The notes beneath the pieces are model-generated. The model was given only the letters and a program-made list of their open reading frames with translations, ran no database searches and was not told where the DNA came from. Positions 1 through 46,672 of a stretch of 64,000 bases of DNA are shown here, in pieces. The stretch spans positions 1,364,001 to 1,428,000 of the forward strand of contig NZ_CP031148.1 in NCBI RefSeq assembly GCF_003342675.1, read 5' to 3'. The position numbers were made by a program, and so were the translations under genes. This stretch comes from Haloplanus rubicundus (GTDB lineage: Archaea; Halobacteriota; Halobacteria; Halobacteriales; Haloferacaceae). The stretch's first letter is position 1, and each line of letters opens with the position of its first letter.

Positions 1-634
1 GCCCGACTCCGGCGACGACCCCCTGGACGATGGCAACGAAGACGTGTCCGAAGAGAACGCCCCACATCACGTCGTTAATCTCGATGTAGAGGTCGCGCTG
101 ACTGTCCATTGGGAGGGGGACCGTTCGGTGGAGCCAGTTGACCAGGTCGTCGCCATCTTTGAGAAGGTAGTACACGAGAAAGAGTGCTAACGCGATTCCG
201 ATGAGGTGGAAGGTGATCGTCCCGAACGCTTGGGTCGACCGTTCGAATACGATCGTCCCGATTTCCCGCCCTGAGCTAACGAGCTCGCCTGTGATATCGA
301 CCTCTTGTCCGGTGAGTTCCTCGATCCGGGATTCGATCATCTCGATCTGCACTGGGTCAGTGTCGAAGTCCTCGAGGACCCGGTCAGCACTATCCACGAC
401 CGTTCCGAGAACGACTACGAGCGGTGCGACGAATCCGGAAACTGCTAGGATCACGAGCGAGAGGGCAGCGACCATCGGCGATACGTACGCTTCGAGGCGG
501 ATCTGCAGCGGATAGAGCACGTAGGCGAGGAGGACGGCACCGAGGACGTACTGGAGAAACGGCTGGATCAGCATGGCCGATAGCACGAGGAGGGTGACGA
601 TGAGGGCGAGGACAAACCCCTTGCTGAGGTTCAC
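1..634 (-). CDS. AI-2E/PerM family membrane transporter, 3' part missing
   Basis: This gene runs off the left edge, so only about 211 codons of a protein usually 340-400 residues long are visible. The N terminus begins MNLSKGFVLALIV and carries two or three closely packed membrane segments in the first 75 residues. A hydrophilic acidic loop containing ELTGQEVDI follows, then another membrane stretch ending LFLVYYLLKDGD. This layout is typical of AI-2E/PerM permeases, a family of putative exporters whose substrates are mostly unknown. I chose the GTG at 634 because the protein then starts like its haloarchaeal relatives; in-frame TTG codons up to 661 are alternatives. It is divergent from the amphi-Trp gene to its right. 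Confidence 0.8.
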   Translation of the reverse strand, partial: MNLSKGFVLALIVTLLVLSAMLIQPFLQYVLGAVLLAYVLYPLQIRLEAYVSPMVAALSLVILAVSGFVAPLVVVLGTVVDSADRVLEDFDTDPVQIEMIESRIEELTGQEVDITGELVSSGREIGTIVFERSTQAFGTITFHLIGIALALFLVYYLLKDGDDLVNWLHRTVPLPMDSQRDLYIEINDVMWGVLFGHVFVAIVQGVVAGVG

Positions 635-790
635 AACTACGAATTTGTCGAGCAATGGCAAAAAGATTCGATATCATCTCAGCTGTAGACCACTTTGATT
701 GCCATCGACTGCCAGGGTTATTCGGACCCGAATCAAAGCCAGTCGGCTACAGCCCCCACTTATGGGTCTGTGTGTCCAACGAGATACCGT

Positions 791-1081
791 ATGCCCGAAG
801 AAGTCCTCTTTCAGTCAGAGGGATCCCAAAGTCGATCGGAGATCGCGTCGTATCTTCGTCGAGTCGCAGACAAACTCGATGCCGGTGACGATATCACCCT
901 GACCGCTGGCGAACAGTCAGTGACAATGACACCCCCTTCCCAACCGACGTTCGAGGTGAAAGCCGAGCGCGAGGGACCGACCGATAGTCCTGGTGAGCTG
1001 AGTATCGAGTTCGAGATCGAGTGGGCTGAAGATGGAGACGTCGGAAACGGTGAAAGCGGTGGTGGGTTGGAAATCGAGTGA
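791..1081 (+). CDS. Amphi-Trp domain protein
   Basis: Small acidic protein of 96 residues beginning MPEEVLFQSEG. A helical segment with RSEIASYLRRVADKLDAG is followed by a beta-rich part containing ITLTAGEQSVTM and ending in an acidic tail. This matches the amphi-Trp domain, a short haloarchaeal family with no established biochemical role. The frame is open further upstream, but the ATG at 791 gives the usual family start and lies a suitable distance from the TATA-like patch before it. A second member lies at 24116, next to a tandem UspA gene, which suggests a link to stress physiology; that link is inferred from context only. Confidence 0.8.
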   Translation: MPEEVLFQSEGSQSRSEIASYLRRVADKLDAGDDITLTAGEQSVTMTPPSQPTFEVKAEREGPTDSPGELSIEFEIEWAEDGDVGNGESGGGLEIE

Positions 1082-1285
1082 AGGCGGTTCTCTGTGGCGA
1101 ATCGGTATTTTTGCGGAGATTTCCGGCGAGAGTCGATATCTCCTGGCTTGTATGGATTATTGTTCTGTCTCCGATTCCAAGACAACATCCCCGCTTGGCG
1201 GCGTTTTTGTCTGACCCAACTGCCAGAGATTTTCTGAATGAGTCTCCAAGTCGGATTCAACAACCACAGGAGACGAAGCACCCGA

Positions 1286-1555
1286 TCACGACTCGATCTC
1301 TCTGATAATTTCGTCGGCTTGCTCACGAGCTTTTTGCTCACCCACGTTCTTCTGGATCAACACAGACTGGACTACCCAATTATCGGGGGCTTCCCGCTTC
1401 CCCATCCGGACCTCGCTTCCCTCCGAGACGGAATCAGAGACACGGTCCGCCCAGTCTGGCGTCCGAATTTGATCGAACTGGTCAGGGTCCCGATACCGAA
1501 CGTGGATGTACTCGTCCTCTGTCGTAATCGACTTGACCTCTGGAATTCGTGCCAT
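1286..1555 (-). CDS. Small hypothetical protein
   Basis: An 89-residue charged protein starting MARIPEVKSITTEDEYIHVRY. Codons show the third-position GC bias of real genes here, and the start codon sits just downstream of an AT-rich patch (about 1580-1600), as expected for a haloarchaeal promoter. The C-terminal half looks helical and ends KAREQADEIIREIES. I do not recognise a family and see no membrane segment, cysteine motif or signal peptide. It stands alone between the amphi-Trp gene and a UspA gene on the same strand, about 150 bases downstream of the latter's stop. Confidence 0.6.
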   Translation of the reverse strand: MARIPEVKSITTEDEYIHVRYRDPDQFDQIRTPDWADRVSDSVSEGSEVRMGKREAPDNWVVQSVLIQKNVGEQKAREQADEIIREIES

Positions 1556-1702
1556 GGCTGTTCGTAGGACAAGGAAATGTAAAAATCAGCATGTCAATTC
1601 GAAACTGAAGGGTTATGAGAAGCACTCGCCAGCTATCCAGATCGAGAGCCTTTTGCTCTGTGGTTCACCGTTTCAGGGCGAATCTGGAGGCACAGTTTGC
1701 GG

Positions 1703-6767: not shown

Positions 6768-7184
6768 ATGTACTCCGATATCTTGATCCCCACGGATGGA
6801 AGCCCGGGAGCGCAGGAAGCTATCGAACACGGACTCGAAATCGCACAACAGTACGAAGCCACGGTTCATGCCTTGTACGTGGTCGATACGCGAGTGTCAC
6901 GATCCGGTCCGCTTCTCGAATCGCTCCAGCTCGAAGGGCGAAAGGCAGTACGGGACCTCGAGGTGGCAGGGACTCAAGCCGGGCTCACCGTCGTCACAGA
7001 GGTCGTTGAAGGGGTTCCACCTCAAGAGATTCTGGAGTATAGTGCGATGCAGGGGATCGATCTCCTCGTGATGGGGACGCAGGGCCGGACTGGCATCGAT
7101 CGCTTCGTGATGGGAAGTGTCGCTGAACGTGTGGTCCGCCACTCTTCGGTTCCCGTTCTCATGGTGCGCAAAGAACAACTGTAG
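6768..7184 (+). CDS. Universal stress protein, single domain
   Basis: A 138-residue UspA domain starting MYSDILIPTDGSPGAQEA. The ATP-loop signature VMGTQGRTGIDRFVMGS is at about 102-118 and the protein ends VPVLMVRKEQL. The frame opens three codons earlier with GTG, but the ATG gives the canonical family N terminus. A palindrome lies at 6720-6734. It is followed, after 130 bases, by a methyltransferase gene in the same direction. The three residues after the first glycine of the loop are TQG rather than SHG or THG, a small variation seen again in the tandem protein at 24474. Confidence 0.93.
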   Translation: MYSDILIPTDGSPGAQEAIEHGLEIAQQYEATVHALYVVDTRVSRSGPLLESLQLEGRKAVRDLEVAGTQAGLTVVTEVVEGVPPQEILEYSAMQGIDLLVMGTQGRTGIDRFVMGSVAERVVRHSSVPVLMVRKEQL

Positions 7185-30909: not shown

Positions 30910-31122
30910 ATGGACAAGAACGTGGGCGGAATCGACCGAACTGGCCGCATCGTCGTGGGTATCGTCATAGCGATAGCGGGTATAGCCGCACTTACCGGCT
31001 ACTGGGCTGCTGGAGCGGTGATCGGAGGGCTCGCTCTCGTTATCGGAGCGATCCTCCTCGTGACCGGAACGACACAAAAGTGTCCCATCAACGAGGCCGC
31101 AGGCATCGACACGACCGAGTGA
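30910..31122 (+). CDS. DUF2892 membrane protein
   Basis: 70 residues beginning MDKNVGGIDRTGRIVVGIVI. Two membrane segments (residues 12-31 and 35-55) are followed by a short tail with a single cysteine in TTQKCPINEAAG. This is the complete YgaP-type DUF2892 unit, which in bacteria occurs alone or fused to rhodanese domains; the KCP-x-N motif after the second helix is conserved in the family. It follows the hydrolase gene by 157 bases. Possibly linked to sulfur or redox handling at the membrane, but untested. Confidence 0.87.
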   Translation: MDKNVGGIDRTGRIVVGIVIAIAGIAALTGYWAAGAVIGGLALVIGAILLVTGTTQKCPINEAAGIDTTE

Positions 31123-31254
31123 TCGACGCTCAGTAGCCCGACCCCGACGCGCCGCTCCGATCGGAAAATATCGGGCCACTCGGAGGAAAGAGCCGTTCGG
31201 GCCGGGCCGCTGGTCAGCCGCCAGCGGGGACGTTCGGGACGCCGTCCAGCGCCG

Positions 31255-32190: not shown

Positions 32191-32372
32191 AATGCTAACT
32201 GTGCAGTTTTGAGGTAAAAAACGTGTACCTGAAGTGGGACGTGCTGTTTTTGACTGTCCAGATCGATCCGGCCGCTCATCACGAGTGGAGCCGTCGAGCC
32301 GTTGTCCCCTTTTTCGTGCGGTGGGAAAGGGTACGTCGATTCATGTTGGTGCTCGACCAACAGGTCGGTCGT

Positions 32373-32882: not shown

Positions 32883-32980
32883 GCCGCAACTCCGGAGCGC
32901 TGATCCCCACTGGCGAAAACCCACATTTCGAGCGATTGGCAATGGTCCCTTACGCGCCCGGCCCAACGAACATCGTGAGT

Positions 32981-33064
32981 GGTGGGATGACAGAGTGGAC
33001 TATCGTGCCTGCTTGGAAAGCAGGTGGCCGAGAGGCCTCGTGGGTTCGAATCCCACTCCCACCG
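32981..33064 (+). tRNA. tRNA-Ser (anticodon GGA)
   Basis: Acceptor ggtggga pairs perfectly with tcccacc, discriminator G at 33064, CCA not encoded. The anticodon arm cctgc-ttggaaa-gcagg puts GGA at 33015-33017. A long variable arm (ggcc-gaga-ggcc) marks a class II tRNA, and the T arm gtggg-ttcgaat-cccac is perfect. The D stem has A-U and C-G pairs but an A-C mismatch at the third position. No intron is seen. It reads UCC and UCU serine codons. No integrase or repeated 3' end is found next to it. Confidence 0.93.
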
Positions 33065-33295
33065 TATCGGTAGCACAAGTCGAATCGGGCGCTGGCCAGC
33101 GGTTCTGACAACATCTATCCGTGCGCAATCAATCTATATCGTCCTGACTTTCTCACCTCACTACCGACGGCGGCGAAGGATGTTCGAACTGGCAGAAACG
33201 CGAATGGTGGCGAGTATCGAGCGGAATACCACAGAGACGTCGATACTTCGTTCGGAGAGAGAGACGATGGCCGATTAGACACGGAGACGCGTTCG

Positions 33296-33499
33296 TTAGC
33301 GCATGTCGTCGAGTGGGACGAACGATCCCTCCGTGGCGGTGATCCACTCGGACTCCAACATCCCCTCGCTCCTCGGCAGCGGCGATATCGAACACGTCTC
33401 CACGTCGTCCGCTCGTTCTGTGATGTTCGCCACGAACGCTTCGTCGTGTGCTGGCCGGAATGGCTCCCAGTCGTCCGATTCAGGGGGAACGGAACTCAT
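33296..33499 (-). CDS. Small haloarchaeal protein (DUF7511-like)
   Basis: 67 residues from the ATG at 33499: MSSVPPESDDWEPFRPAHDE, then ETCSISPLPRSEG and ESEWITATEGSFVPLDDMR. The ending with W-I/L-T-x-x-x-G-S-F/Y-V-x-L-x-x-M-R is shared by a family of short haloarchaeal proteins (DUF7511 as I remember it) of unknown function. The frame is open 60 codons further upstream without family character. It lies between the tRNA-Ser gene and the CBS gene, on the strand of the latter. Confidence 0.6.
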   Translation of the reverse strand: MSSVPPESDDWEPFRPAHDEAFVANITERADDVETCSISPLPRSEGMLESEWITATEGSFVPLDDMR

Positions 33500-33685
33500 C
33501 TTTTTCACCTCGTGGTCGATAGCGTCGATTTCGTAGAGGGACGTTGGACCTAGCCGCACAAAAACATCGTATCCGATTACAACTCGCTGGGACTCCCCCG
33601 GCGTGCTCCGTACACGTACCGCGCTGTCGCAGTGTAACCAAGGGAGGGCACCGATCTTCGGCGATGCGACAGGAGCCACGGGCCA

Positions 33686-34915
33686 TCATTCGAGCATCCA
33701 GCCGAAGCGCTTCTCCCAGAACTCCTTGGTCTGGGGCTTCTTGCTTTCGCCGTACGTCTTGCGATCACGAATCTGCCGTTCGAGCACGTCGCGTGCCTCG
33801 TTGAGTGCGTGACTCGCCCCATAGCCTTCTCCGGAGGCGATGTACAGCCCTCGATCCGTGTGTAGACGGATGCGGGCAAGCAGAAGAGGCGTCCCTCGAA
33901 GTTTCTCGTCGTGTTCGTGAAGGTGGATCTTCGCGTCTAGAACGGACATCCCGTGGTCACGGTCGTCGAACTTCTCGATCATCGCAACGACGTCCTCGTA
34001 TTGCACGTCATCCAGCAAATCGGTGCCATAGACTTGGACGGCTCGATTGCCGCCAGCCTCCCACGTGAGCGAATCGAGGACGTCGGTCTTCGTGACGATA
34101 CCGAAGGGCCGGCCGTCTTCCGTGACGACGAGCGACGATCCGCCGATGGCGAACATCTCCTCGACGGCCGTCTCGAGTGTCGCGTCCGGGTAAATCGTGC
34201 GTACCGGCGAGACCATGACGTCCCTGACGGGGAGATCCAAAATGCGGGCGAGTTCTCCTTCCCGGGCGCCGAAACCGCCGTGAGCCCGACCGGAACTGGC
34301 CGAAATGTCCCCGCCGAACGAGTCCGTGCCACCTGCATCGCCGCCTTGGCTCTGTTTCGCGGAACGAACCGTTAGATCGGTCACGTCGTAGAGGCTCAGG
34401 ATGCCAATTGCGGTGTCGTCCTCGACGACCGGGAGATGTGTAATCCGATTCTCTCGGAACACGTGGAGTGCTTCACCGAAGGTCGACTCCGGATCGAGCG
34501 TGACGAGGTCGGCAGTGGAGGCCTCGGCGACGGTCGCCGCGTCGAGAAACGGCCGGACTTTCTCCAGAATCGCATCGACGGTGACGACGCCCGCTAGTTC
34601 GCCCCCGTCGAAGACCGGGAGGAGTTGTGCATCACTGTCGATCATGAGCTGGGCAACCTTGCGGATGTCCTCATCGGGGGCCAGTCTGGGGACGTGCCAG
34701 ACGAGCGAACCGACCTTTTCGTCGGGTTGGTGGTGCGAGGTGGCGAGCTGTCTCCTCGTGACGATTCCCTCGAATTCGTCGCCGTGTACGACGACCCCCT
34801 TGACGGTCGGATCGTCGAACGCACCGACGAGCTTCGACACGGGCGTGTCCGGTGAGAGCGCTACGTACTCTCCTGAGACGATATCGGCAATGTCCATGGT
34901 TGCTTGGATGTCCAC
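33686..34915 (-). CDS. Four-CBS protein with HPF/RaiA-like C-terminal domain
   Basis: 409 residues. Four CBS motifs form two Bateman modules: about 7-60, 70-120 (VPRLAPDEDIRKVAQLMIDS), 130-185 (LVTLDPESTFGEALHVFREN), and, after a glycine-rich linker (185-222), 232-285 (RDVMVSPVRTIYPDATLETA). The last 100 residues resemble the S30AE ribosome-hibernation fold: VLDAKIHLHEHDEKLRGTP, then GLYIASGEGYGASHALNEAR and DVLERQIRDRK. A nucleotide sensor joined to a ribosome-binding-like domain suggests energy-controlled translation arrest; this is inference. A second ATG six codons in (MDIADI) is an alternative start. Confidence 0.82.
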   Translation of the reverse strand: MDIQATMDIADIVSGEYVALSPDTPVSKLVGAFDDPTVKGVVVHGDEFEGIVTRRQLATSHHQPDEKVGSLVWHVPRLAPDEDIRKVAQLMIDSDAQLLPVFDGGELAGVVTVDAILEKVRPFLDAATVAEASTADLVTLDPESTFGEALHVFRENRITHLPVVEDDTAIGILSLYDVTDLTVRSAKQSQGGDAGGTDSFGGDISASSGRAHGGFGAREGELARILDLPVRDVMVSPVRTIYPDATLETAVEEMFAIGGSSLVVTEDGRPFGIVTKTDVLDSLTWEAGGNRAVQVYGTDLLDDVQYEDVVAMIEKFDDRDHGMSVLDAKIHLHEHDEKLRGTPLLLARIRLHTDRGLYIASGEGYGASHALNEARDVLERQIRDRKTYGESKKPQTKEFWEKRFGWMLE

Positions 34916-35202
34916 TCCGGTTGATTGTCGGTCGGGTCGGCCGCGGCCGTAGTGGTAACACGTGCCATTTCAATATAGATTTACAAGTATTCGCTGGTCG
35001 TTCCCGATATTTGGAAAGCGACGAACAGCGCCCGTCGCGAAACGAGTTGCCCCAGCGGCTACTCGACGCCCATCCCTGCTAATCGACACGTTCGACGGTG
35101 TATCGTCGCCCGAGAGGGCGTTAGCAAGAGAAATTGGAAGGCGGCCCGAAGACACCCAGTACGAGCGCTCCAGTGAGCGTCCGACGAGAGAACCGCGCGC
35201 GG

Positions 35203-36537
35203 TTAGAATCCCCACGGGTACAGATCCGGGATCGCCTCGATGTCGGCGTGGACATCGAGCGGATGGAGGGCGCTCGTCTCGTCGAGATAGATGAATGCGT
35301 CGTATCGGTCGGGAAGAACCGTCGGCACGTAGTTCCCGGCTTCGTGAGCCGGGTGATACACGACACCGATGGCGCGATGCCCCCGAGGTCGGGTGAGCGG
35401 CGAGTCGTCGGAAAGCTCCCCGGTTACGAGGAAACAGTCGCCTCCACCCGCCCGCTCGAAGACGTGTTCGTAACTTCCCTCCTGTGCGGGTGGGACCGTC
35501 ATCTCCTCCAACCGTGCGCCCCACGAATCCGCGGCGATCACCGTGCCCTGGTGTGAACCCATACCAATCAACGCCACGTCGGCGCTGCCTTCGTGTTCGC
35601 GAACGAGTTGGCCGACATTGAGTCGTCCCCGTGCTTCCATGTCGGTCGCTCTAGCGTCACCGATATGGGTGTTGTGGGCCCAGACGATGCCCTTGCTATC
35701 CGATCCGTGATGCTTCTGCAAACGCTCCAGCGTTTCGACCATGTGCCGGTCCCGGATGTTCCAGGAGTCGACCTCGCCACGAACCATCTCTCGGTAGTAC
35801 TGTTCCGCGTTTTTTGCGACCAAGGCGTTCTGTTCGGCGTTGAAGTAGTCGTCGCGGCTGTGGTCGTACGCTGCGACCTGCTCGCGGAGCCGCGTCAACA
35901 GTTCCACCACCTCGTCCTCGCAGGTCTCGGGAACCATCTGGAGCGCCCGCGCGTACTCCTGTGCGTCTTCACCGTACGGTTCGAAACACCGGTAGGCGGC
36001 CTTGGCCTCGGCTGCCGCATCCGGGTCTACGTCTTCGAGATAATCCACGACTGCGTCCATCGACTCGAACAGGCTGTACACGTCGAGGCCGTAGAACCCG
36101 ATTCGATCGTCTTCGGGGAGACGCTGGTTGTGACGCTCCAGCCAATCGAGGAATTCGAGGGTCTCCCAGTTCGCCCACATCCATGTCGGCCACCGTTCGA
36201 ACGCCTCGAGAGCGTCGCGGATCGTCTCGGGGGACTCCGGGAGACCCTTGACGAACCGATTGATCTCGTAACAGTCCGTCCAGTCACCCTCCACAGCGAC
36301 GAACGAGAAATCTTTCTCTTGGACGAGTCGGGCCGTCAGCCGCGTACGCCAGCGGTAGTACTCCGTGGTGCCGTGCGAAGCTTCCCCCAGCAACACGTAT
36401 TTTCGATCTCCGAATTGCTCGACAAGACGATCCAGATCGGAGGGCTGTTCCAGTCCGTGCGCCGTCGAGCGGACGTCGGCGACGGCCGCGTCGATGTCGC
36501 CCGGTTCGGTCCACGACGTGCGATCCTGGAGCGTCAT
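35203..36537 (-). CDS. Erythromycin-esterase family protein
   Basis: 444 residues. Family blocks: YVLLGEASHGTTEYYRWRTR (the GExSHG motif with the catalytic-type Glu and His), VAVEGDWTDCYEINRFV, IGFYGLDVYSLFESM, then KGIVWAHNTHIGDARATDME with the key HN-x-H-x-G. These match EreA/EreB-like and succinoglycan-type homologues. Genuine macrolide hydrolysis is unlikely in this setting; mycobacterial and other stress clusters hold such domains next to phosphoribosyltransferases. Its start overlaps the end of the DUF5828 gene by four bases, so the two are translationally coupled. Confidence 0.93.
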   Translation of the reverse strand: MTLQDRTSWTEPGDIDAAVADVRSTAHGLEQPSDLDRLVEQFGDRKYVLLGEASHGTTEYYRWRTRLTARLVQEKDFSFVAVEGDWTDCYEINRFVKGLPESPETIRDALEAFERWPTWMWANWETLEFLDWLERHNQRLPEDDRIGFYGLDVYSLFESMDAVVDYLEDVDPDAAAEAKAAYRCFEPYGEDAQEYARALQMVPETCEDEVVELLTRLREQVAAYDHSRDDYFNAEQNALVAKNAEQYYREMVRGEVDSWNIRDRHMVETLERLQKHHGSDSKGIVWAHNTHIGDARATDMEARGRLNVGQLVREHEGSADVALIGMGSHQGTVIAADSWGARLEEMTVPPAQEGSYEHVFERAGGGDCFLVTGELSDDSPLTRPRGHRAIGVVYHPAHEAGNYVPTVLPDRYDAFIYLDETSALHPLDVHADIEAIPDLYPWGF

Positions 36538-37130
36538 ACGTCCCCTCGGCCGGCCTCTTCGACCACGTCGAGTCGCTGGCTGACTTTCTCTTTGAGTTGG
36601 TCGTCGTGAATGTTCACCTGGAATACGAACTCGTCTCCATCTTCCAGCCGTGTCGTCTCTCGAAGGTTCGCACTCACGAGTTCGTTATCGAAGTAATATG
36701 GTGCAAATCGAGTCATCACTCGCTCGTAGACAGCTGTTTCTAGCGTGCGGATGGCCTTCCGCGTGGTCGTGTCGACCGCACGGAGCCCATGTTCGAGGGC
36801 GTCCTCCCACTTCTCGAGCATGTCCTCGGGGCCGTCCCCTTCGGCTTTCTCGATCGATTCGAGAGCGTGCTCGCTCGCCCGTTCGAGATCCTCCGTGGCA
36901 GCCTGTCCGGCCCGTTCGCCAGCACCTCGTTCGAGACTGGCCTTCTCGACGGTCTTCTCGCTCACTTCCTCACCGAGGTCTTCGTGGGCTTTCGGCCGCC
37001 AGTCGTCCCACTCGGCGAGTGCGTCCTCATCGACATCGCTCTCCCGCAACGCACGGGTGATCCGCTCACCGTGTGCGACGACGTCTTCCCACGATCCGCG
37101 GACACGAAAGCCGGAGACGCGTTCTTCCAT
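36534..37130 (-). CDS. DUF5828 family protein
   Basis: 198 residues, acidic. An N-terminal part (MEERVSGFRVRGSWEDVVAH) leads to a long helical central region with EHALESIEKAEGDGPEDMLE, and the last 70 residues (YERVMTRFAPYYFDNELVSA, DEFVFQVNIHDDQLKEKVS) are a compact alpha/beta end. The family is confined to haloarchaea and has no known role. Its stop overlaps the start of the erythromycin-esterase-like gene, so they form an operon, and the 49-residue gene at 37157 lies downstream of nothing else, just 26 bases upstream on the same strand. Confidence 0.78.
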   Translation of the reverse strand: MEERVSGFRVRGSWEDVVAHGERITRALRESDVDEDALAEWDDWRPKAHEDLGEEVSEKTVEKASLERGAGERAGQAATEDLERASEHALESIEKAEGDGPEDMLEKWEDALEHGLRAVDTTTRKAIRTLETAVYERVMTRFAPYYFDNELVSANLRETTRLEDGDEFVFQVNIHDDQLKEKVSQRLDVVEEAGRGDV

Positions 37131-37435: not shown

Positions 37436-39250
37436 ATGCCTGCAGCGACCGTTGGGACGTTCCTCGTCTTTCTGATTATCCTCGCCGCTCTCGTTTTGTT
37501 CGTCACCGAGCCGGTCCCGATCGACGTCACAGCGATCGGGATCATGGTCACGCTGATGATACTCGGTCCGTGGACGGGCGTCTCGCCGCGCGAGGGCGTC
37601 TCCGGCTTCTCGAACCCCGCAACGATCACGATTCTCGCGATGATGATCCTGAGCGAAGGCGTCCGTCGGACGGGTGCGATTCAGCGTCTCGAAAAGACGG
37701 TCGCCTCCTACACGGGCGAGAGCGAACACAAGCAACTCGGCGCAACGGTCGGGCTCGTCGGTCCGCTCTCGGGAATCATCAACAACACCGCTGCCGTCGC
37801 CGTCTTGCTGCCGATGGTGAGCGATCTTGCTCACGAGAACGGGACATCGCCGTCAAAGTTGCTCATTCCGCTTTCCTACGCGTCGATGGCTGGTGGGATG
37901 CTCACGCTCATCGGAACGTCCACGAACCTTCTGGCCAGCGACGTGGCGAGTCGACTCGCCACCGACTATCCCTCCTTGCACGCGTTCTCGATGTTCGAGT
38001 TCACCCACCTCGGTCTCGTGGTATTTCTCGTCACCGGGGTGTACCTCCTTACGATCGGGTACTGGCTTGCTCCGTCTCACGTGACCCCTCGCAGTAAGCT
38101 CGAAACGACACAAAAGGAGGAGTTTCTCACCGAGGTGATCGTGGGCGAAGAATCACCGTTCATCGGCTCGACGATCCGGGAAGCGCTCGAAGAGGTCGAC
38201 TTCGAAGCGAACGTCACCCAACTTATTCGTGACGGTGACTATCATCGAGAGCCGAGACTGTCGATGACGATACGGGAGGGGGACACGTTCACGATCCGGC
38301 TCACCGAAGACGCGTTACGGACGCTCCACGAGGTAGAGGGGATCGAGTTCGTTCCGGAAGTCACGCCGCCAGGTGGGCTCGATGCGCTCGGCCCCGGGCA
38401 AACGCTCATCGAAATCGTCGTCACCGCCGGGTCCGATCTCGTCGGCGAAACGGTCGAGTCGTCACGGTTTCAAGACCAGTATCAGACGGCTGTGCTGGCC
38501 ATCCGCCGTGGCGGTGAGACCGCCTACGAACGCCTCACAGAGTACCGAATCCGTCCGGGCGACCTGCTCCTCATCGAGTCCGAACCGGACACTGTCGACC
38601 GACTTGCAGACGATCCGAACGTGATCGTGGCTGGTGAACTCGCCCTCCAGCAGTTCCGGTCGTCGAAACTCCCGATCGCAGTCGGTGTCGTGCTCTCGGT
38701 CGTCGGAGTGGCAGCATTCGGACTCCTGCCGGTCATGGTCGCAGCGCTTGGCGGCGTCATGGTGATGATCGTGACTGGAATCGTCAAGCCGGCGGAGGCC
38801 TACGGGGCCGTCCAGTGGGACGTGATCTTCCTGCTCGCCGGCGTCATTCCCCTCGGCAGGGCGCTGTCGGAGACGGGCGGTGCCGATCTGCTCGGTACGT
38901 TCGTCGTCTCCACGGCTGACTTCCTGCCCGAAATCGCCGTTCTCGGGCTGTTCTATCTGCTGACCGTGGCGATGACCAACCTCATCAGCAACCAGGCCAG
39001 CGTCGTGTTGCTCATCCCTGTCGCCGTCGACGCGGCCGCTCGGCTGAACGCGAACGCGTTCGCGTTCGTTCTCGCGGTCACGTTCGCCGCCAGCACGGCG
39101 TTCATGTCGCCGGTCGGGTATCAGACCAACCTCTTTGTCTACGGTCCGGGAGGGTACGATTTCAGTGACTACGCTCGTGTCGGCGGGCCGCTCCAAGTGA
39201 TTCTGGGAATCGTAACGACGCTCGGAATCGCCACGTTCTGGGGCATCTAA
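37436..39250 (+). CDS. SLC13/DASS-type ion transporter with two TrkA-C domains
   Basis: 604 residues. N-terminal membrane half (1-205) with GFSNPATITILAMMILSEGV and GIINNTAAVAVLLPMVSDLA, the family SNT-like motifs plus GTSTNLLAS. Two soluble RCK-C (TrkA-C) domains occupy about 225-300 and 310-395 (PFIGSTIREALEEVDFEANV; LIEIVVTAGSDLVGETVESS). The membrane part resumes with NLISNQASVVLLIPVAVDAA and GYQTNLFVYGPGGY. Proteins of this plan import dicarboxylates, sulfate or other anions with sodium. It is divergent from the DUF7557-like gene. Confidence 0.93.
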   Translation: MPAATVGTFLVFLIILAALVLFVTEPVPIDVTAIGIMVTLMILGPWTGVSPREGVSGFSNPATITILAMMILSEGVRRTGAIQRLEKTVASYTGESEHKQLGATVGLVGPLSGIINNTAAVAVLLPMVSDLAHENGTSPSKLLIPLSYASMAGGMLTLIGTSTNLLASDVASRLATDYPSLHAFSMFEFTHLGLVVFLVTGVYLLTIGYWLAPSHVTPRSKLETTQKEEFLTEVIVGEESPFIGSTIREALEEVDFEANVTQLIRDGDYHREPRLSMTIREGDTFTIRLTEDALRTLHEVEGIEFVPEVTPPGGLDALGPGQTLIEIVVTAGSDLVGETVESSRFQDQYQTAVLAIRRGGETAYERLTEYRIRPGDLLLIESEPDTVDRLADDPNVIVAGELALQQFRSSKLPIAVGVVLSVVGVAAFGLLPVMVAALGGVMVMIVTGIVKPAEAYGAVQWDVIFLLAGVIPLGRALSETGGADLLGTFVVSTADFLPEIAVLGLFYLLTVAMTNLISNQASVVLLIPVAVDAAARLNANAFAFVLAVTFAASTAFMSPVGYQTNLFVYGPGGYDFSDYARVGGPLQVILGIVTTLGIATFWGI

Positions 39251-39565: not shown

Positions 39566-40462
39566 GTGTTCGAACAGATTCTCTTTCCCACTGACGGGAG
39601 TGACGGAGCAGCATTCGCTTTCAATCACGTCGTAGACCTCGCAGCCCGCCACGACGCAACAGTCCACATCCTCAACGTCGCAGATACGACGGGGAACGGT
39701 ATTCTACAGATTCGAGGCGACGATATCGACTCTCTCGAACAGGAGGGAGATCGAATAGTCAGCGAGGCTGCCAACCGGGCACACCAGCGTGGAATAGACA
39801 CCGTCACGGAAGTCCGCCAGGGAGAACCGTATCGCGAAATCGCCGACTACGCCGAAACACACGGATTCGATCTCGTCGTCATGCCAACGCACGGACGCCG
39901 GGGACTCGAACGGTTTCTGCTCGGTAGCACCTGCGAGCGAGTCGTCCGTCGGGCAGATGTTCCCGTACTCACGATTCGACCCGACGACGACGTCAGGGTT
40001 ACTCATCCCTACCAGAACGTCCTCGTCCCCACCGACGGGAGTAACTGTGCCAATCAAGCACTCGCCATCGGCGCCGACGTCGCTGACGGTGAGGATGCAA
40101 CACTGCACCTCCTATCCGTGATCGCTATCACGGCGCTGGGGGCCGATGCTCGCCCCGATATCCAGATGGGGATGTTAGAAGAGAATGCCCACGAACTGCT
40201 TGACGAGGCTGCGGCGTTCGCCGAAAACGCTGGTATCGAAACAGCGTCGACAACGGTCGAATACGCCCCCTCGATTCACAAGGCGATCCTCACTCACATC
40301 GACGACCACGACATTGACCTCGTCGTCGTCGGCACACACGGGCGTACGGGCTTCGACCGGTACGTGCTGGGAAGCGTCACCGAGTATCTTGTTCGTACAT
40401 CGCCGATTCCGGTACTGACGGTCCGAGCACCCGAAGCGGACACAAAGGACGGTTCCGGGTAG
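39566..40462 (+). CDS. Tandem-domain universal stress protein
   Basis: 298 residues from GTG 39566 (VFEQILFPTDGSDGAAFAFN); a GTG nine codons earlier (39539) is possible. Domain 1 has VMPTHGRRGLERFLLGSTCE, where the first glycine of the ATP loop is a proline, so nucleotide binding in this half may be weakened. Domain 2 (from NVLVPTDGSNCANQ) has the full VVGTHGRTGFDRYVLGSVTE. The protein ends with a short acidic tail. It lies upstream of the cation ATPase gene in the same direction, 149 bases away, possibly as one unit. Confidence 0.92.
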   Translation: MFEQILFPTDGSDGAAFAFNHVVDLAARHDATVHILNVADTTGNGILQIRGDDIDSLEQEGDRIVSEAANRAHQRGIDTVTEVRQGEPYREIADYAETHGFDLVVMPTHGRRGLERFLLGSTCERVVRRADVPVLTIRPDDDVRVTHPYQNVLVPTDGSNCANQALAIGADVADGEDATLHLLSVIAITALGADARPDIQMGMLEENAHELLDEAAAFAENAGIETASTTVEYAPSIHKAILTHIDDHDIDLVVVGTHGRTGFDRYVLGSVTEYLVRTSPIPVLTVRAPEADTKDGSG

Positions 40463-40611: not shown

Positions 40612-43341
40612 ATGACTCGGCCTGATTCGGAGATCTCGGAGCCTTGGCACACGATGTCGACTGACGACGTCTTCTCGGCGTTGGCGACCGGTGAGACGGG
40701 ACTTTCGTCCGATGAAGCGGCTCGCAGACTGTCGGAGTACGGCACGAACGACATCCACGACGCTGAACGGACATCGGTTTTCGAGCTACTTGTCTCACAG
40801 TTCCGTGACCCACTCATCTATCTCCTCGTCGTAGCAGCACTCCTGTCTCTCGGTATCGGGTTCATCCCTGGCGGTGAGCCCAATTACACCGAAACAGCGT
40901 TCATCGTTCTCATCATCGGTGTCAACGGGCTGTTCGGATTTGTTCAGGATTATCAGGCCACCCGGTCAATCGAAGCGCTTCGTGAACTCGCAAGCCCGGA
41001 TACGACCGTCTACCGCGACGGGCGGAAGCAGACGATCGATGCCGAACAGGTCGTCCCCGGTGATATCATCCACCTCGAACAAGGGGATGCAATTCCAGCC
41101 GACGCTCGAGTGCTGGAGAGTGACGAGTTGCGGACGAGCGAGTCACCGCTCACTGGGGAAAGCGCACCCGTCGAGAAAGCGACCGAGACCGCAGACGAAG
41201 AGACGCCGCTGGCCGAGCGCCGCAATATGGTCTATAAGAACACAACCGTCGTGAAAGGTCGCGGAAGCGCGGTCGTCGTCGAAACCGGCATGGAGACCGA
41301 GGTCGGTGGGATCGCGACCCAGCTCGGTGAGGCTGACGATCAACAGACACCGTTTCAGGCAGAGGTCGAGCATCTCGGAAAACAGATCGGTGGGCTGGTC
41401 GTCGCGCTGATCGTCTTGGTCGTCGCGGTTCAATTTCTGTTCACCGCAACGGATCCAGTTGCCATCCTCCTCGTTGGAATCACCCTTGCCGTTGCCGGCG
41501 TACCGGAGGGATTGCCTGCAGTCGTGACGTTCACGCTGGCGTTGGGCGCACGAGAGATGGTTGACCGGAACGCGTTGGTCAGACGACTCCCGGTCGTCGA
41601 AAGTCTCGGCTCGGTCGACGTCATTGTCACCGACAAGACTGGGACGATCACTGAAAACCGGATGACAGTGACGCGGCTGTACACGTCGGGCTCCGTCGTT
41701 GATCTGTCCGATTCGACCACGAAATCGGAGGGTGATCCCGGGGAAAGCGCGCAAAGTACCGCCGACGGCGACCAACTGACGACTCCAGCACTCGTTCCAC
41801 TGTTACGATGTGGCGCGCTCTGTAACAACGTCGAGCGGACGGACGACGAGTATCGTGGTGAGCCGACCGAGGTCGCCCTCCAGCGGATCGCGGACGAGGC
41901 GGATGTCGAACCCACTGGAGAGCGGTGCCGTGACATTCAGTTCTCCTCGGAACGGAAACGGATGACCGTACTCGTCGACGATGGAGCGGTGACAGCCTAT
42001 ATGAAGGGGGCACCGGAAGTCGTCCTAGATCGATGTAATACTATCCTCGAGGACGGTGAGACACACGATCTCACGGACGACAAACGCCAGGAAATTCTCG
42101 ACCAAACGGAGTCGTTTGCCGGGGACGCGCTTCGAGTGCTGGGATTCGCGTCGAAGGCTATCGACGATCCGTCGGCCGAACCGGATCAGATCGAGGACGA
42201 AATGGTGTTTCTCGGCCTGCAGGGGATGCTCGATCCACCCCGAGAAGGGGTCGAAGCGGCCATCGACGACTGCCAATCAGCCGGTGTCCGGACTGTACTG
42301 GCGACTGGAGACAACCTCACCACGGCCGAGGCTGTCGGCGAGCAGGTCGGGCTCGATCCCGACGGTGCCGTTACGGGCAGTGACATCGACGACCAATCGG
42401 ACGATCAGCTCACGAGTACGGTCGAAGATATCGATGTGTTCGCTCGAGTGACGCCAGATCACAAGGTTCGTCTGCTTAACGCGCTTCAGAACAATGGACA
42501 CACTGTCGTGATGACTGGCGACGGTGTCAACGATGCGCCAGCACTCACGCAGGCGGACGTGGGGGTCGCGATGGGAGGGCGTGGTACCGACGTCGCTCGG
42601 CAGGCGTCCGATATGATTCTGCGGGACGACAACTTCGCGACAATCCGTGACGCGATCCGGGAGGGACGGGGCATCTTCGAGAACGTGCGCAAGTTCGTCA
42701 ACTATCTGGTCTCGACCAACACCGGGGAGGTACTGGTGGTGTTCCTCGGCGTATTGCTTGGGAGTCTGCTCTTCCCCGCACAGTTCTCGGGGACGTCGCA
42801 AGCGTTGATTTTGACGCCGATTCTGATCCTCTGGATCAACCTCGTTGCGGATACGCTTCCCGCGCTTGCACTCGGGGCCGATCCACACGCTGATGGGCTC
42901 ATGGACCAGCCACCACGACCCCCTGACGAAGGCGTGATTAACACTCGCGTGTTGGTGTCGATTCTGACGATTGCAACCCTGCTAGCAGTGACGGGCCTCG
43001 GGCTCTTCTTCTACGCCCTCGATACCACTGGGTCGCTGCTGCGAGCCCAGTCGCTACTGTTTACGTTCATCGTCGTTGTCGAGTTGATCCGTATCCAAGT
43101 TATCCGCTCGCGGTACGACCAGCCGTTGCGTTCGAATCTGTGGCTCGTCGGTGCTATCGGTGTCTCGCTCCTCGTTCACATCACAGTCCTGTATACCCCG
43201 CTTCACGACGTTTTTCAGGTCGTTCCCCTCACCCTCGTCGAGTGGGCGTTGATCGCCGCTGGATTCGTCGTTTTCCTCCTGCTCAACGTGGTCATATCCG
43301 CATCGAATAACCGACTCTTCGAGTCACGGGCATCGGAGTAA
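40612..43341 (+). CDS. P2-type cation-transporting ATPase
   Basis: 909 residues. Domain order: cation-ATPase N terminus (about 10-75), actuator with SPLTGESAP, membrane helix 4 with AGVPEGLPAVVT, phosphorylation site VTDKTGT (Asp341), nucleotide domain with MKGAPE, hinge MTGDGVNDAPALTQADVGVA, and six C-terminal membrane segments. PEGL in helix 4 and the length place it in the P2A/P2B calcium-type or related Na/K-type group rather than heavy-metal pumps. Mycobacterial CtpF, a dormancy gene, is of this class. The ATG at 40612 is chosen; a GTG at 40579 is upstream. Confidence 0.95.
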   Translation: MTRPDSEISEPWHTMSTDDVFSALATGETGLSSDEAARRLSEYGTNDIHDAERTSVFELLVSQFRDPLIYLLVVAALLSLGIGFIPGGEPNYTETAFIVLIIGVNGLFGFVQDYQATRSIEALRELASPDTTVYRDGRKQTIDAEQVVPGDIIHLEQGDAIPADARVLESDELRTSESPLTGESAPVEKATETADEETPLAERRNMVYKNTTVVKGRGSAVVVETGMETEVGGIATQLGEADDQQTPFQAEVEHLGKQIGGLVVALIVLVVAVQFLFTATDPVAILLVGITLAVAGVPEGLPAVVTFTLALGAREMVDRNALVRRLPVVESLGSVDVIVTDKTGTITENRMTVTRLYTSGSVVDLSDSTTKSEGDPGESAQSTADGDQLTTPALVPLLRCGALCNNVERTDDEYRGEPTEVALQRIADEADVEPTGERCRDIQFSSERKRMTVLVDDGAVTAYMKGAPEVVLDRCNTILEDGETHDLTDDKRQEILDQTESFAGDALRVLGFASKAIDDPSAEPDQIEDEMVFLGLQGMLDPPREGVEAAIDDCQSAGVRTVLATGDNLTTAEAVGEQVGLDPDGAVTGSDIDDQSDDQLTSTVEDIDVFARVTPDHKVRLLNALQNNGHTVVMTGDGVNDAPALTQADVGVAMGGRGTDVARQASDMILRDDNFATIRDAIREGRGIFENVRKFVNYLVSTNTGEVLVVFLGVLLGSLLFPAQFSGTSQALILTPILILWINLVADTLPALALGADPHADGLMDQPPRPPDEGVINTRVLVSILTIATLLAVTGLGLFFYALDTTGSLLRAQSLLFTFIVVVELIRIQVIRSRYDQPLRSNLWLVGAIGVSLLVHITVLYTPLHDVFQVVPLTLVEWALIAAGFVVFLLLNVVISASNNRLFESRASE

Positions 43342-44221: not shown

Positions 44222-44668
44222 TTACGAAGACTCGTCGGAGGATTCAGCAGGCATACCAACCGTCAACACCGGAGCATCGGAGCGGCGGACGACTTTTTCA
44301 GTAACGCTGCCGAGGAGATATCGATCCAGCCCCGTTCGGCCGTGCGTTCCCATAACGACAAGATCGATATCGTGTTCGTCGATATGATCGAGAATTGCCT
44401 GGTGAGGTGTGCCCTGTGCAACGACGCCTTCGATCGTTTTCACGCCGGCTGCCTCTGCTTGCTGGAGCACCCCATCGATCGCGTTCTCTCCAGCTTCTTC
44501 GAGGGTATCGAGCGTCCCAGGGACTGAAGCATCGATCCCGACGTTCGTATCGACGACGTAAATTGTGTGGAGCGTGGCGTCGTAGGTCGTTGCGAGATTA
44601 ATTGCGTGTTCGACGGCGCCTCGCGTTCCTTCACTTCCATCCGTCGGGAGCAGTATCTGCTCGTACAT
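44222..44668 (-). CDS. Universal stress protein, single domain
   Basis: 148 residues: MYEQILLPTDGSEGTRGAVE at the start, TPHQAILDHIDEHDIDLVVM then GTHGRTGLDRYLLGSVTEKV with all nucleotide-loop positions kept, and a serine-rich tail (SSDESS). Canonical ATP-binding type. The IS6 copy was inserted 60 bases after its stop codon, so the gene is unharmed. On its upstream side lies the solo IS1341-type hairpin at 44776, which may have disrupted or replaced part of its promoter region, as the hairpin starts only about 105 bases before the ATG. Confidence 0.95.
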   Translation of the reverse strand: MYEQILLPTDGSEGTRGAVEHAINLATTYDATLHTIYVVDTNVGIDASVPGTLDTLEEAGENAIDGVLQQAEAAGVKTIEGVVAQGTPHQAILDHIDEHDIDLVVMGTHGRTGLDRYLLGSVTEKVVRRSDAPVLTVGMPAESSDESS

Positions 44669-44775
44669 ACCGAACTATCACCAACGGAGGGACAAAGAGA
44701 ACCCGTCAATTACGAGAGATTGGGAAGTGTTCAGTAGCCCATTTCGGGTAGATTCAGCATAATTCAAGGTGGAGC

Positions 44776-44818
44776 CTCCGACCTCAAGGAGCGAGCGTCG
44801 CGAGCGAGTAGGTCGGAG
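44776..44818 (+). ncRNA. Solo IS1341-type right-end / omega-RNA-like hairpin
   Basis: ctccgacct and aggtcggag form a perfect 9-bp stem around a 25-base loop with the pattern caa-gga-gcga ... gcgagt. The same layout, with different stem bases, ends the tnpB element at 46196-46245. Three stem pairs differ between the two copies and all are compensated, which supports a conserved RNA or DNA fold. No tnpB belongs to this copy, so it is a relic or a miniature derivative of such an element. Confidence 0.6.
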
Positions 44819-44920
44819 AGGAAGCCGACACGGTACTACACTAACTACGCTCGATGGCTGGCCGACTCCCCCACCGAATCGTGACTAATATAAAGACATA
44901 GACTCACACCTGAAGTACGG

Positions 44921-46238
44921 ATGGAGATACGTCGCACCGTCCCCGTTAAACTCGACGTGGCCGACAGCGACGCCGACCTTCTCCACGAAACCATCTCCGA
45001 GTTCCTGTGGGCCGCCAACTACGTCGTCGACCACGCGTGGCAAGGCGAGTACAAGACCACGAGCAAAGCCGAGCTCCAACGGGAAACATACGACGACGTG
45101 CGGGCCGAAACGAGGCTCCAAGCTAACCTCGTTCAGAACGCTCGCAACAAGGCCGCCGACGCCGTACAGAGCGTCGTCTCTCGGTGGAAGCAAGGTGACT
45201 GCGCGGGGAAGCCGCGCTTCACCGCCCCGACGCTCGTCTACGACAAGCGGTGTGCGACGTTCAACGACGACCACGCGACGCTCTCAACCGTCGAAGGGCG
45301 TATCACCGCCAAGTACGTCCTCCCCGACGAGAGCCGCGAGACGCCCCACTCGGAGTATCTGTTCAACGATGACTACGAAGTGACGGGCGGGGAACTCCAC
45401 TACCGCGACGGTGAGTTCTACCTTCACGTCCGAACAAAGGCGGATGTGGAGTTCGAGACCGCCGACAAAGGCGGATGTGGAGTTCGAGACCGCCGACAAA
45501 GGCAACGACGAGCACAGCACAGTCCTCGGCGTTGACCTCGGCATCGAGAACGTCGCCGTCACTTCGACAGGTTCGTTCTGGAACGGGTCGGAGTTGAACC
45601 ACTGGCACCGCGAGTTCGAGAAACGGCGTGGGTCGCTCCAACAGCATGGAACACGGGCCGCCCACGAAACCATCCAGTCGATCGGATGCACCGAGACGGG
45701 TCGCTACGACCACTTCTTACACACTGTCTCGAAGGAACTCGTCGCGGAAGCCGTCGAAAACAACTGTGACGTGATCGCGTTCGAGTACCTGACTGGGATT
45801 CGTGAGCGGATGCCGAACGCCAAGAAATTCCACGCGTGGGCGTTCCGACGCCTGTTTGAGTACGTCGAATACAAAGCCGAAGTCGTCGGCATCTCGGTTG
45901 AACAGGTGAGTCCCGCATACACGAGCCAGCGGTGTTCTAAGTGCGGCTTCACTCACGAAAACAACCGCCCGGCCTCGGACAGACAGGCTGTATTCGAGTG
46001 CCTGAAATGCGGGTACTCACCACACGCGGACTACAACGCGGCGAAGAATATCGGTCTAAAGTATCTCCGCTCGGCGCAAAAGTCGTCGGGCGGAGGCGCA
46101 CCCGTAAACGTGCGCTTGAATCGCGGGACATTGAACGTGAACGGCAATTACCGGCCTGCCGCCGACGGCGGCCAGAACGGGAGTCCACGCGAAAGCCCCA
46201 CCCTCAACGAAGCGAACGGTGGAGCCGTGAGCGAGTAG
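44921..46238 (+). pseudogene. tnpB: tnpB broken by a 31-bp tandem duplication
   Basis: The first part (MEIRRTVPVKLDVADSDADL to [19 protein letters not shown]) and the second part ([20 protein letters not shown] to the end) belong to one TnpB but lie in different frames. The cause is the tandem repeat at 45435-45496. The second part contains RuvC Asp ([11 protein letters not shown]), Glu ([14 protein letters not shown]), zinc-ribbon cysteines ([15 protein letters not shown]) and the final [12 protein letters not shown]. Apart from the shift all catalytic residues are kept, and dropping one repeat unit restores a protein of roughly 428 residues. It is unlike the shorter TnpB at 21782. Confidence 0.92.
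45435..45503 (+). repeat. 31-bp tandem duplication inside tnpB
   Basis: The unit at 45435-45465 is repeated exactly at 45466-45496, followed by a further seven matching bases (caaaggc). Both full copies are identical, indicating a very recent event. Because 31 is not a multiple of three the reading frame is shifted by one base. The seven-base direct repeat at the borders (caaaggc) is the likely slippage or recombination seed. Confidence 0.97.
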
Positions 46239-46249
46239 GGTGGGGTAGT

Positions 46250-46672
46250 TTACGTGGCGACCAAGACCGGTCTTCCCGCATTCTGGACGACGCGGTCGGT
46301 CACGCTCCCAATCTGCTCTCCCTTTGCGTGGGAGTGCCCGTGGTAGCCGAGAACTACCAGATCGGCGTCAATCTCGTCAGCGTAGTTGATAATCTCGATA
46401 TATGGCTTCCCATGACAACACTGAGTAGTAACCGCAATATCGAGTTCTTCGCCCCGGTCGGCAATCTCCGAGAGTTCCTGATTGCCCCACTCTTCGATCT
46501 CCATGGTTTCCAGTTCCGTGCTACTCAGGGCCGGTTCGGCGTATCGATCGGTATCGACGACGAAGATCGCATGAAGTTCAGCGTCGTGCTGTTCGGCCTG
46601 TTCGAGTGCGTGTGTCGCTGCGCGGTTCGCGTCGGCACTTCCATCGGTCGCGACCAATATGGTATCGTACAT
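46250..46672 (-). CDS. Universal stress protein with altered ATP loop
   Basis: 140 residues starting MYDTILVATDGSADANRAAT. The loop region is VVLGYHGHSHAKGEQIGSVTDRV, in which the usual G-x-H-G-R-T-G reads GYHGHSHAKG, so the arginine and spacing are changed and nucleotide binding is doubtful. The PYIEIINYADEIDADLVVLG block is otherwise typical. The ATG at 46672 is preferred to one 16 codons upstream. The right end of the tnpB element abuts its stop codon. Confidence 0.9.
   Translation of the reverse strand: MYDTILVATDGSADANRAATHALEQAEQHDAELHAIFVVDTDRYAEPALSSTELETMEIEEWGNQELSEIADRGEELDIAVTTQCCHGKPYIEIINYADEIDADLVVLGYHGHSHAKGEQIGSVTDRVVQNAGRPVLVAT

What the first reader, a model, noticed from the sequence alone, without database searches (positions are those of the whole stretch)
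1..46672. A haloarchaeal dormancy/stress island with a DosR-like gene inventory
In 46 kb the window gathers six intact UspA genes (eight domains), two small CBS-pair genes plus a four-CBS gene, a phosphoribosyltransferase beside a hydrolase, an erythromycin-esterase-like gene, a P2-type cation ATPase, a small-molecule methyltransferase and three DUF2267 genes. Actinobacterial DosR regulons and related bacterial hypoxia clusters contain the same families (Usp, Hrp1-type CBS, phosphoribosyltransferase with hydrolase or erythromycin esterase, CtpF). The parallel could reflect shared descent of a mobile stress cassette or repeated assembly. The families are established; the grouping as one system is my inference.
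Basis: partly seen in the sequence, partly recalled or inferred. Interest (0 to 1): 0.72.

Follow-up and report, generated by a model that had tools for sequence, protein, structure and literature searches.

The report
Mobile haloarchaeal stress-survival gene island
A salt-loving archaeon carries a mobile block of stress genes that recurs on plasmids and chromosomes of other haloarchaea and resembles the gene kit that some bacteria use to survive dormancy; whether it does the same job is not yet tested.

Summary
The grouping is partly right. A core cassette (about 27.1-39.3 kb) recurs on named plasmids and in another genome of the genus, where 9.5 kb is 94% identical at a different chromosomal place while core DNA is 70-84%. 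Two or more other cassette markers lie within about 20 kb in 9 of 20 four-CBS and 10 of 24 esterase anchors, 0 of 20 random windows; 7 of 20 and 9 of 24 anchors have none. The richest relatives are more DosR-like than this window. PRTase, hydrolase and esterase lie together in several bacterial phyla and are one gene on a Rhizobium plasmid; each haloarchaeal family is one clade against the bacteria sampled, so shared descent of this trio is plausible. Against one DosR-like regulon: no DosR/DosS-type gene among the window proteins scanned, no shared operator, CBS pairs not Hrp1-specific, methyltransferase not linked. Joint induction is untested. New variant of a known kind.

The parts
27091..36547 (.). 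Core cassette block, 94% DNA identity over 9,468 bp to another genome of the genus (G173), where it lies at a different chromosomal place
27149..27577 (-). two-CBS protein
   Evidence: Pfam; G173 96%, plasmid XH8 86%
29360..30004 (-). phosphoribosyltransferase (clade I); the family profile matches solved structure 1wd5 best
30111..30752 (+). alpha/beta hydrolase, divergent from the PRTase
30910..31122 (+). YgaP-like transmembrane protein
   Evidence: in plasmids L061, L062, L064
31255..32190 (-). conserved cassette protein of unknown function (g35), 61-95% identical in six relatives
   Evidence: no Pfam family
32343..32882 (+). DUF2267 protein of the cassette type
32980..33065 (+). cassette-borne tRNA-Ser(GGA), downstream of DUF2267; distinct from the genome's other tRNA-Ser(GGA)
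33296..33559 (-). DUF7511 small protein
   Evidence: also in L062 and L212
33686..34915 (-). four-CBS protein
35203..36537 (-). erythromycin-esterase-like protein (window type)
36534..37130 (-). DUF5828 protein
   Evidence: L061 and L064
37157..37306 (-). 49-residue protein (g41)
37436..39250 (+). SLC13/CitMHS permease with TrkA_C domains, 95-96% identical on two plasmids
39566..40462 (+). double Usp protein
40654..43341 (+). P2-type cation ATPase (best NCBIfam models are calcium type, below their cut-offs)
44222..44668 (-). Usp, shared with two plasmids (84-86%)
46250..46672 (-). Usp, shared with the Salinigranum plasmid (94%)
24474..25349 (+). double Usp protein
23084..23842 (-). PAC2 protein, also in cassettes elsewhere
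25380..26801 (-). ABC1-type kinase, 89% on plasmid XH8
1703..5096 (-). Usp, Na/Pi cotransporter and MgtC-DUF4010 block; the three recur together near a four-CBS gene on the Haloferax mediterranei plasmid
6768..7184 (+). Usp

Best explanation
The window lies in a low-G+C, mosaic stress-survival island of a haloarchaeon. Its core is a horizontally moving cassette of about 9.5-12 kb (PRTase, alpha/beta hydrolase, YgaP-like, g35, DUF2267, tRNA-Ser, four-CBS protein, esterase-like protein, DUF5828, SLC13). Usp genes, a P2 ATPase, PAC2, MgtC-DUF4010 and other genes gather round it, in varying order, on plasmids and chromosomes of Halobacteria. Proposed working: when energy falls, Usp and CBS proteins bind ATP/AMP-type ligands and gate metabolism and transport; PRTase, and in relatives AMP phosphorylase and nicotinate PRTase, recycle nucleobases, PRPP and NAD; the hydrolases remove damaged or blocking esters; the P2 ATPase, SLC13, MscS and MgtC-type proteins hold ion balance. 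So it would work like the bacterial DosR/lxa survival sets without their regulator. Shown here: gene content, recurrent co-location, mobility, trans-domain adjacency and one fusion of PRTase, hydrolase and esterase. Inferred: joint expression, the inducing signal, each biochemical role and the survival benefit.
For: Content. Collinear or shuffled copies on plasmids of Salinigranum marinum, Haloferacaceae XH8 and Salinirubellus. Anchored tests: clade I PRTase windows hold 28 Usp domains in 10 windows, against 3 in 29 clade II windows and 6 in 20 random ones; four-CBS anchors 75 Usp domains in 20 windows against 6 in 20, DUF2267 9 of 20 against 0, P2 ATPase 5 of 20 against 0; esterase anchors PRTase 9 of 24 against 0 of 20, hydrolase 6 of 24 against 0. 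Mobility: 94% over 9,468 bp at another place in G173, against 70-84% for other DNA compared; esterases of the cassette type group across three family codes (f1, f4, f6) while other esterases of f1 lie elsewhere in the tree. Some relatives add Hsp20, SagB-type nitroreductase, AMP phosphorylase, nicotinate PRTase and PNPOx. Outside Halobacteria: PRTase within 10 kb of 13 of 77 esterase loci, 11 of the 13 within 1.3 kb; those 13 carry Usp or Hsp20 more often than the other 64 (6 of 13 against 5 of 64, p 0.0021); all three proteins are one open frame on a Rhizobium plasmid. Literature (passages only): hypoxia-induced gene list of M. tuberculosis, Rv2030c as PRTase plus esterase, lxa with six Usps and low-oxygen induction.
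Against: No shared operator in 42 upstream regions; no two-component or other obvious regulator among the window proteins scanned. 9 of 24 esterase and 7 of 20 four-CBS anchors have no other marker; presence of any Usp is not significant round the esterase (8 of 24 against 6 of 20, p 0.54) or the four-CBS gene (11 of 20 against 6 of 20, p 0.1), and the Usp counts are significant only round the latter. Over all 20 four-CBS anchors Hsp20, SagB, AMP phosphorylase, nicotinate PRTase and PNPOx are not significantly enriched (p 0.10-0.26). 64 of 77 non-haloarchaeal esterase loci lack the PRTase. Several genes of 6-22 kb (for example PolX, BRCT, ZIP, AIR-synthase-like) were not seen in the cassettes compared. 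Several anchors come from the same genus and are not independent. No expression data.
Confidence: 0.6

Rival explanations
1. A plasticity zone: a variable low-G+C stretch beside RdfA and an SMC-like gene collects accessory genes, and stress families gather there because they are common accessory cargo, with no joint function.
For: The stretch left of the RdfA region is low in G+C and different in G281, and G173 holds pieces of it there; 7 of 20 and 9 of 24 anchors lack partners; no operator; TnpB genes and a transposase-like piece inside.
Against: Specific families recur together at four-CBS and esterase anchors but not in random windows; windows round clade II PRTases are not enriched for Usp or DUF2267. 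The same divergent PRTase/hydrolase pair is kept across family codes.
Confidence: 0.25
2. Repeated assembly: Usp and CBS genes are so numerous in haloarchaea that clusters form repeatedly by local duplication, and the bacterial likeness is convergent.
For: 71 Usp domains in this genome; up to 15 Usp domains in 20 kb; round the bacterial trio DUF2267 and CBS are not significantly enriched (2 of 13 each, p 0.072 and 0.13).
Against: PRTase, hydrolase and esterase stay adjacent across domains and each haloarchaeal family is one clade against the bacteria sampled; collinear plasmid blocks show descent within Halobacteria.
Confidence: 0.1

Closest known systems
DosR (DevR) dormancy regulon of mycobacteria
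   Same: Usp proteins, CBS protein, PRTase with esterase domain, cation P-type ATPase; in some relatives also Hsp20 and nitroreductase. Compared with the hypoxia-induced gene list in PMC4082495 (table passage), Rv2030c domains in PMC4410610 (passages) and Rv0571c as putative PRTase and Rv2032/Rv3131 as nitroreductases in PMC5309233 (passages). The hydrolase domain of Rv0571c and the family names of other Rv genes are recalled.
   Different: No DosR/DosS found, no shared operator, separate PRTase, hydrolase and esterase genes here, plasmid-borne mobile block, different domain of life; induction unknown.
OsdR core regulon of Streptomyces coelicolor
   Same: Usp genes and a nitroreductase gathered in one chromosomal stretch (PMC5069765, passages).
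   Different: OsdKR regulator and binding sites are present there; none found here.
[quoted passage not shown]
   Same: About 50 genes with six Usps, alpha-crystallin and phosphofructokinase, involved in anoxic persistence (PMC6127331, PMC9104464; passages).
   Different: Induction shown there, not here; the words erythromycin, phosphoribosyl and CBS do not occur in the main text of PMC6127331, so that part of its content was not established.

Membership tests
DosR regulon | DosR response regulator and DosS/DosT heme sensor kinases in or near the set | tested here: not met
   No response regulator or histidine kinase among the window proteins scanned; genes outside the window were not Pfam-scanned.
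DosR regulon | shared operator upstream of member genes | tested here: not met
   No dyad in more than 2 of 42 upstream regions; shuffles reached 1 or 2. TGTGA-N6-TCACA is exact at one place only.
DosR regulon | gene families of the set | tested here: inconclusive
   Met in part in the window, more fully in relatives L237, L240 and L063, but the extra families are not significantly enriched over all anchors.
DosR regulon | Hrp1-type CBS protein | tested here: not met
   27.1-kb CBS protein: Hrp1 not among 31 PDB hits at 1e-8; 9.5-kb one hits Rv2626c at 3e-12, but seven other CBS sequences score better.
DosR regulon / lxa locus | induction by low oxygen | not testable with these tools
   No expression data available.
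mobile genomic island | atypical composition and discordant identity or location against relatives | tested here: met
mobile genomic island | own integrase or defined attachment ends | tested here: inconclusive
   Only TnpB and a DDE transposase-like piece among the proteins scanned; ends not defined; tRNA-Ser lies inside the cassette.
macrolide-inactivating erythromycin esterases (EreA/B/C/D) | match to the curated resistance-enzyme models | tested here: not met
   PF05139 is met, but EreB 32.7 of 750 bits and EreD 31.5 of 800.

The most novel reading that the evidence does not exclude
PRTase, alpha/beta hydrolase and esterase-like protein form one ancient survival module shared by Bacteria and Archaea, at the heart of DosR-type regulons and of a plasmid-borne haloarchaeal cassette that recruits Usp, CBS, DUF2267 and P2-ATPase genes. 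In one haloarchaeal lineage the cassette also carries its own tRNA-Ser, which would tune translation in the dormant state.
Probability: 0.25. Interest if true: 0.78.

Novelty: new variant of a known kind. Interest (0 to 1): 0.6.

Why it matters
Dormancy regulons are studied mainly in bacteria (general knowledge). A mobile archaeal counterpart, part of it on a plasmid of the laboratory strain Haloferax mediterranei, would let the conserved but poorly understood PRTase/esterase/Usp/CBS proteins be tested in a harmless organism, and would show which parts of the bacterial dormancy sets are an old, transferable kit rather than a mycobacterial invention.

Tried and rejected
Shared operator: dyads and 8-mers in 42 upstream regions gave nothing clearly above shuffles. 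The motif I recalled for the anaerobic regulator NarO was in excess in the window (18 against 8.0 expected, 0 of 100 shuffles), but 8 of the 18, both exact copies among them, lie outside the island; the listing did not confirm the motif and I opened none of those papers. Fold of g35: mean pLDDT 54, not used further. Four-CBS gene in viral contigs: no relative. Hrp1-type CBS and macrolide-resistance readings were rejected. Supply of serine codons as the reason for the tRNA: TCC+TCT is 25.5% of serine codons in the island and 26.1% in the flank, so no support. My note that PRTase and hydrolase share one frame in L240 was wrong: they are divergent there. Literature: the listings (some capped, for example 12 of 1,948) show no paper that, by title and start of abstract, describes this haloarchaeal cassette or compares it with DosR; subscription papers are not held, so this is not proof of absence.

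Rows dropped or cut: five PRTase loci (G024, G053, G085, G078, G097) were fetched because DUF2267 or a partial copy lay close and were left out of the comparison; L067 and L069 were left out of the esterase trees because they repeat L003 and L006, and the three haloarchaeal loci L067-L069 out of the non-haloarchaeal counts. The 20 four-CBS anchors were taken down the list (about 70 matches at 70% identity or more); DUF2267 positions had already been seen for four of those genomes (G007, G045, G101, G109). The random windows are at round coordinates in seven genomes. Five of 24 esterase windows are cut by contig ends. The first profiles were built partly from loci L021-L064, which include some tested windows; the windows were not used for them, but were for the Hsp20-type profiles.
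Full report
WHAT IS THERE. Gene calls and Pfam confirm every family in the finding: six Usp genes with eight domains, two CBS pairs, a four-CBS gene, a PRTase divergent from an alpha/beta hydrolase, an erythromycin-esterase-family gene, a P2-type ATPase, a methyltransferase and three DUF2267 genes. Also present are two Amphi-Trp proteins, MgtC-DUF4010, MscS, a Na/Pi cotransporter, ZIP, two APC permeases, SLC13, PAC2, an ABC1-type kinase, a thiamine-binding protein, a PolX-like protein, a TIM-barrel AP endonuclease, a YgaP-like protein and two TnpB genes. The window lies on a 3.4-Mb contig of a 3.77-Mb genome. G+C is 56-62% up to 48 kb and 64-70% beyond. To the left it stays mostly at 54-63% for about 80 kb, with one 4-kb step at 67%, and drops to 41-52% near contig position 1.26-1.28 Mb, so position 1 of the window is not a boundary.

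IS THE GROUPING MORE THAN CHANCE? Within the genome, 71 Usp domains predict 0.88 in 46.7 kb; eight are seen. Co-location was then tested in other haloarchaea. PRTases fall into a clade near the window's (70% identity or more, clade I) and others (clade II). In windows of about 20 kb, clade I (n = 10, window excluded) has Usp in 7, hydrolase in 7 and DUF2267 in 3; clade II (n = 29) has 3, 1 and 0; random windows (n = 20) 6, 0 and 0. Usp domains number 28, 3 and 6. With the four-CBS gene as anchor (20 of about 70 matches of 70% identity or more), Usp domains are 75 against 6 in random windows, DUF2267 9 of 20 against 0 of 20, P2 ATPase 5 against 0, PRTase 5 against 0, DUF4010 4 against 0; the presence of any Usp is 11 of 20 against 6 of 20, not significant. 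The window-type esterase is in 25 of 391 genomes; of the 24 others, 9 have the PRTase, 6 the hydrolase and 5 DUF2267 in the window, against none of 20 random windows; the four-CBS profile is found in 8 of 24 against 2 of 20 (p 0.068) and Usp in 8 of 24 against 6 of 20. Two or more other markers: 10 of 24, 9 of 20, 0 of 20. No other marker at all: 9 of 24, 7 of 20, 18 of 20. The association is real but loose. The other esterase type of haloarchaea showed no marker in 6 of 6 windows. Some anchors belong to the same genus, and five esterase windows were cut short by contig ends.

IT MOVES. Window 27,091-36,547 is 94% identical over 9,468 bp to G173, a genome of the same genus. Elsewhere the two agree less: 77% for the best part of a 2.2-kb flank, 70-74% for stretches just right of the island, 81-84% for a 9-kb core sample. 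In G173 the block lies near 1.90 Mb, while the flank's counterpart is near 1.02 Mb. Plasmids of Salinigranum marinum and Haloferacaceae archaeon XH8 carry most of 29.4-39.2 kb in the same order, reversed, at 78-90% DNA identity, along with Usp, PAC2, DUF4010 and APC genes found elsewhere in the window. XH8 lacks the esterase between DUF5828 and the four-CBS gene. A Salinirubellus plasmid (family Haloarculaceae by its record) has PRTase, hydrolase, g35, YgaP, DUF2267, part of DUF5828, the four-CBS gene and DUF7511.

SOME RELATIVES ARE MORE DosR-LIKE. Three four-CBS anchors (L237, L240, L242) hold 14, 12 and 15 Usp domains in 20 kb, each with PRTase and hydrolase. Pfam and NCBIfam on selected genes show, in L237, a SagB-type nitroreductase, Hsp20, AMP phosphorylase and a P2 ATPase and, in L240, nicotinate PRTase, a HAD protein and two PNPOx proteins. 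Hsp20, SagB, AMP phosphorylase, nicotinate PRTase and PNPOx are each not significantly enriched over all 20 anchors (p 0.10-0.26), so this describes the richest islands only. A Natrinema caseinilyticum plasmid has PRTase, two four-CBS genes, Usps, two Hsp20s, a SagB-type protein, a site-2 protease and PNPOx. The Haloferax mediterranei plasmid pHME505 has a four-CBS gene with Usps, SagB, a B12-dependent ribonucleotide reductase, MgtC, a Na/Pi symporter and deoxyribonuclease IV; its Na/Pi, Usp, MgtC, AP-endonuclease and g22 genes match the left part of the window. The published hypoxia-induced list of M. tuberculosis holds ctpF, hspX and pfkB (PMC4082495, table passage); Rv2030c has PRTase and esterase domains (PMC4410610, passages). 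Matching other Rv genes to families rests partly on recall.

BACTERIA. PRTase lies within 10 kb in 13 of 77 and hydrolase in 10; 11 of the 13 PRTases lie within 1.3 kb of the esterase. All three lie together in Bacteroidota, Actinomycetota and a Lujinxingiaceae genome and on a Sphingobium plasmid. On a Rhizobium leguminosarum plasmid PRTase, hydrolase and esterase are one open frame of 866 codons, and on a Rhodococcus plasmid PRTase and esterase are one frame. Fusion argues for joint work of the three. The 13 loci with PRTase have Usp in 4 and Hsp20 in 4; the other 64 have 3 and 2 (p 0.014 and 0.0064). PRTases of a Paracoccus and a Peptoclostridium plasmid lie in unrelated neighbourhoods. In trees, 27 haloarchaeal esterases of this type form one clade against 79 others (support 98; nine rows), and haloarchaeal PRTases (99) and hydrolases (95) are each separated from the bacteria sampled. 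These are quick trees with few, partly selected bacteria. They favour one old entry of each gene into Halobacteria, or shared descent, over repeated recent import. Within Halobacteria the esterases of the cassette type (window, G173, G135, Salinigranum, G096, G291, G388, G147) group across family codes f1, f4 and f6, while other f1 members lie elsewhere, as expected of transfer between families.

A tRNA IN THE CASSETTE. The tRNA-Ser(GGA) at 32980-33065 follows DUF2267 on the same strand. The same tRNA beside DUF2267 is found in G173, Salinigranum, XH8, Salinirubellus and G349 (there with anticodon AGA). It is absent near several other cassettes (L043, L063, L240, L241, L245, L248). Its nearest relative elsewhere in the genome is tRNA-Ser(UGA), 83%, although the genome has another tRNA-Ser(GGA). 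Copies of 92% or more occur in 11 of 391 genomes; in only 4 of the 11 does a four-CBS match listed lie within 3 kb. Its role is open.

HOW IT PROBABLY WORKS. Usp and CBS proteins commonly bind adenine nucleotides (general knowledge of the families). With a PRTase, and nucleotide- and NAD-salvage enzymes in some relatives, the simplest reading is a kit for energy-starved, non-growing cells. Gene content, recurrence and mobility are shown; everything about expression, signal and benefit is inferred. No DosR/DosS-type gene was seen among the window proteins scanned and no shared operator was found, so this is not shown to be a member of the DosR regulon even if it works like one.

VERDICT. Observation confirmed; interpretation partly supported. 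New variant of a known kind.

Noticed in passing
window 32980-33065: A second tRNA-Ser(GGA), with a body like tRNA-Ser(UGA), travels with the cassette downstream of DUF2267 in six loci; one copy has anticodon AGA.
   Followed up: partly
window 30045-30060: Exact palindrome TGTGA-N6-TCACA in the divergent PRTase/hydrolase promoter; nearly kept on two plasmids (L061, L064), not evident in the more distant loci aligned.
   Followed up: partly
window 48462-51022: RdfA and an SMC-like gene flank the island; both also lie near the cassette on the Salinirubellus plasmid (L062), and the region left of them differs in related genomes.
   Followed up: partly
L064 10574-10636: Plasmid XH8 lacks the esterase gene exactly between DUF5828 and the four-CBS gene, a natural presence/absence pair.
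   Followed up: no
G000:C1:57457-73296: Another Usp cluster in the same genome on a different contig, at least eight domains in 16 kb (capped list).
   Followed up: no
L051 9957-10208, L054 9933-10181: Partial PRTase copies (83-84 residues matched) beside DUF2267 in G085 and G078, probably remnants of the cassette.
   Followed up: no
L061 27735-28644: The DUF2267 gene of the Salinigranum plasmid matches only in pieces, while its tRNA-Ser is intact.
   Followed up: no
window 31255-32190: g35, a 311-residue protein without Pfam match, is kept in the cassette (61-95% identity in six relatives); its predicted fold was poor.
   Followed up: partly
window 21782-22831 and 45477-46238: Two TnpB genes inside the island, the second short; a DDE transposase-like piece at 43473-44108.
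   Followed up: no
L318 12034-14631: PRTase, alpha/beta hydrolase and esterase fused in one 866-codon frame on a Rhizobium leguminosarum plasmid.
   Followed up: partly
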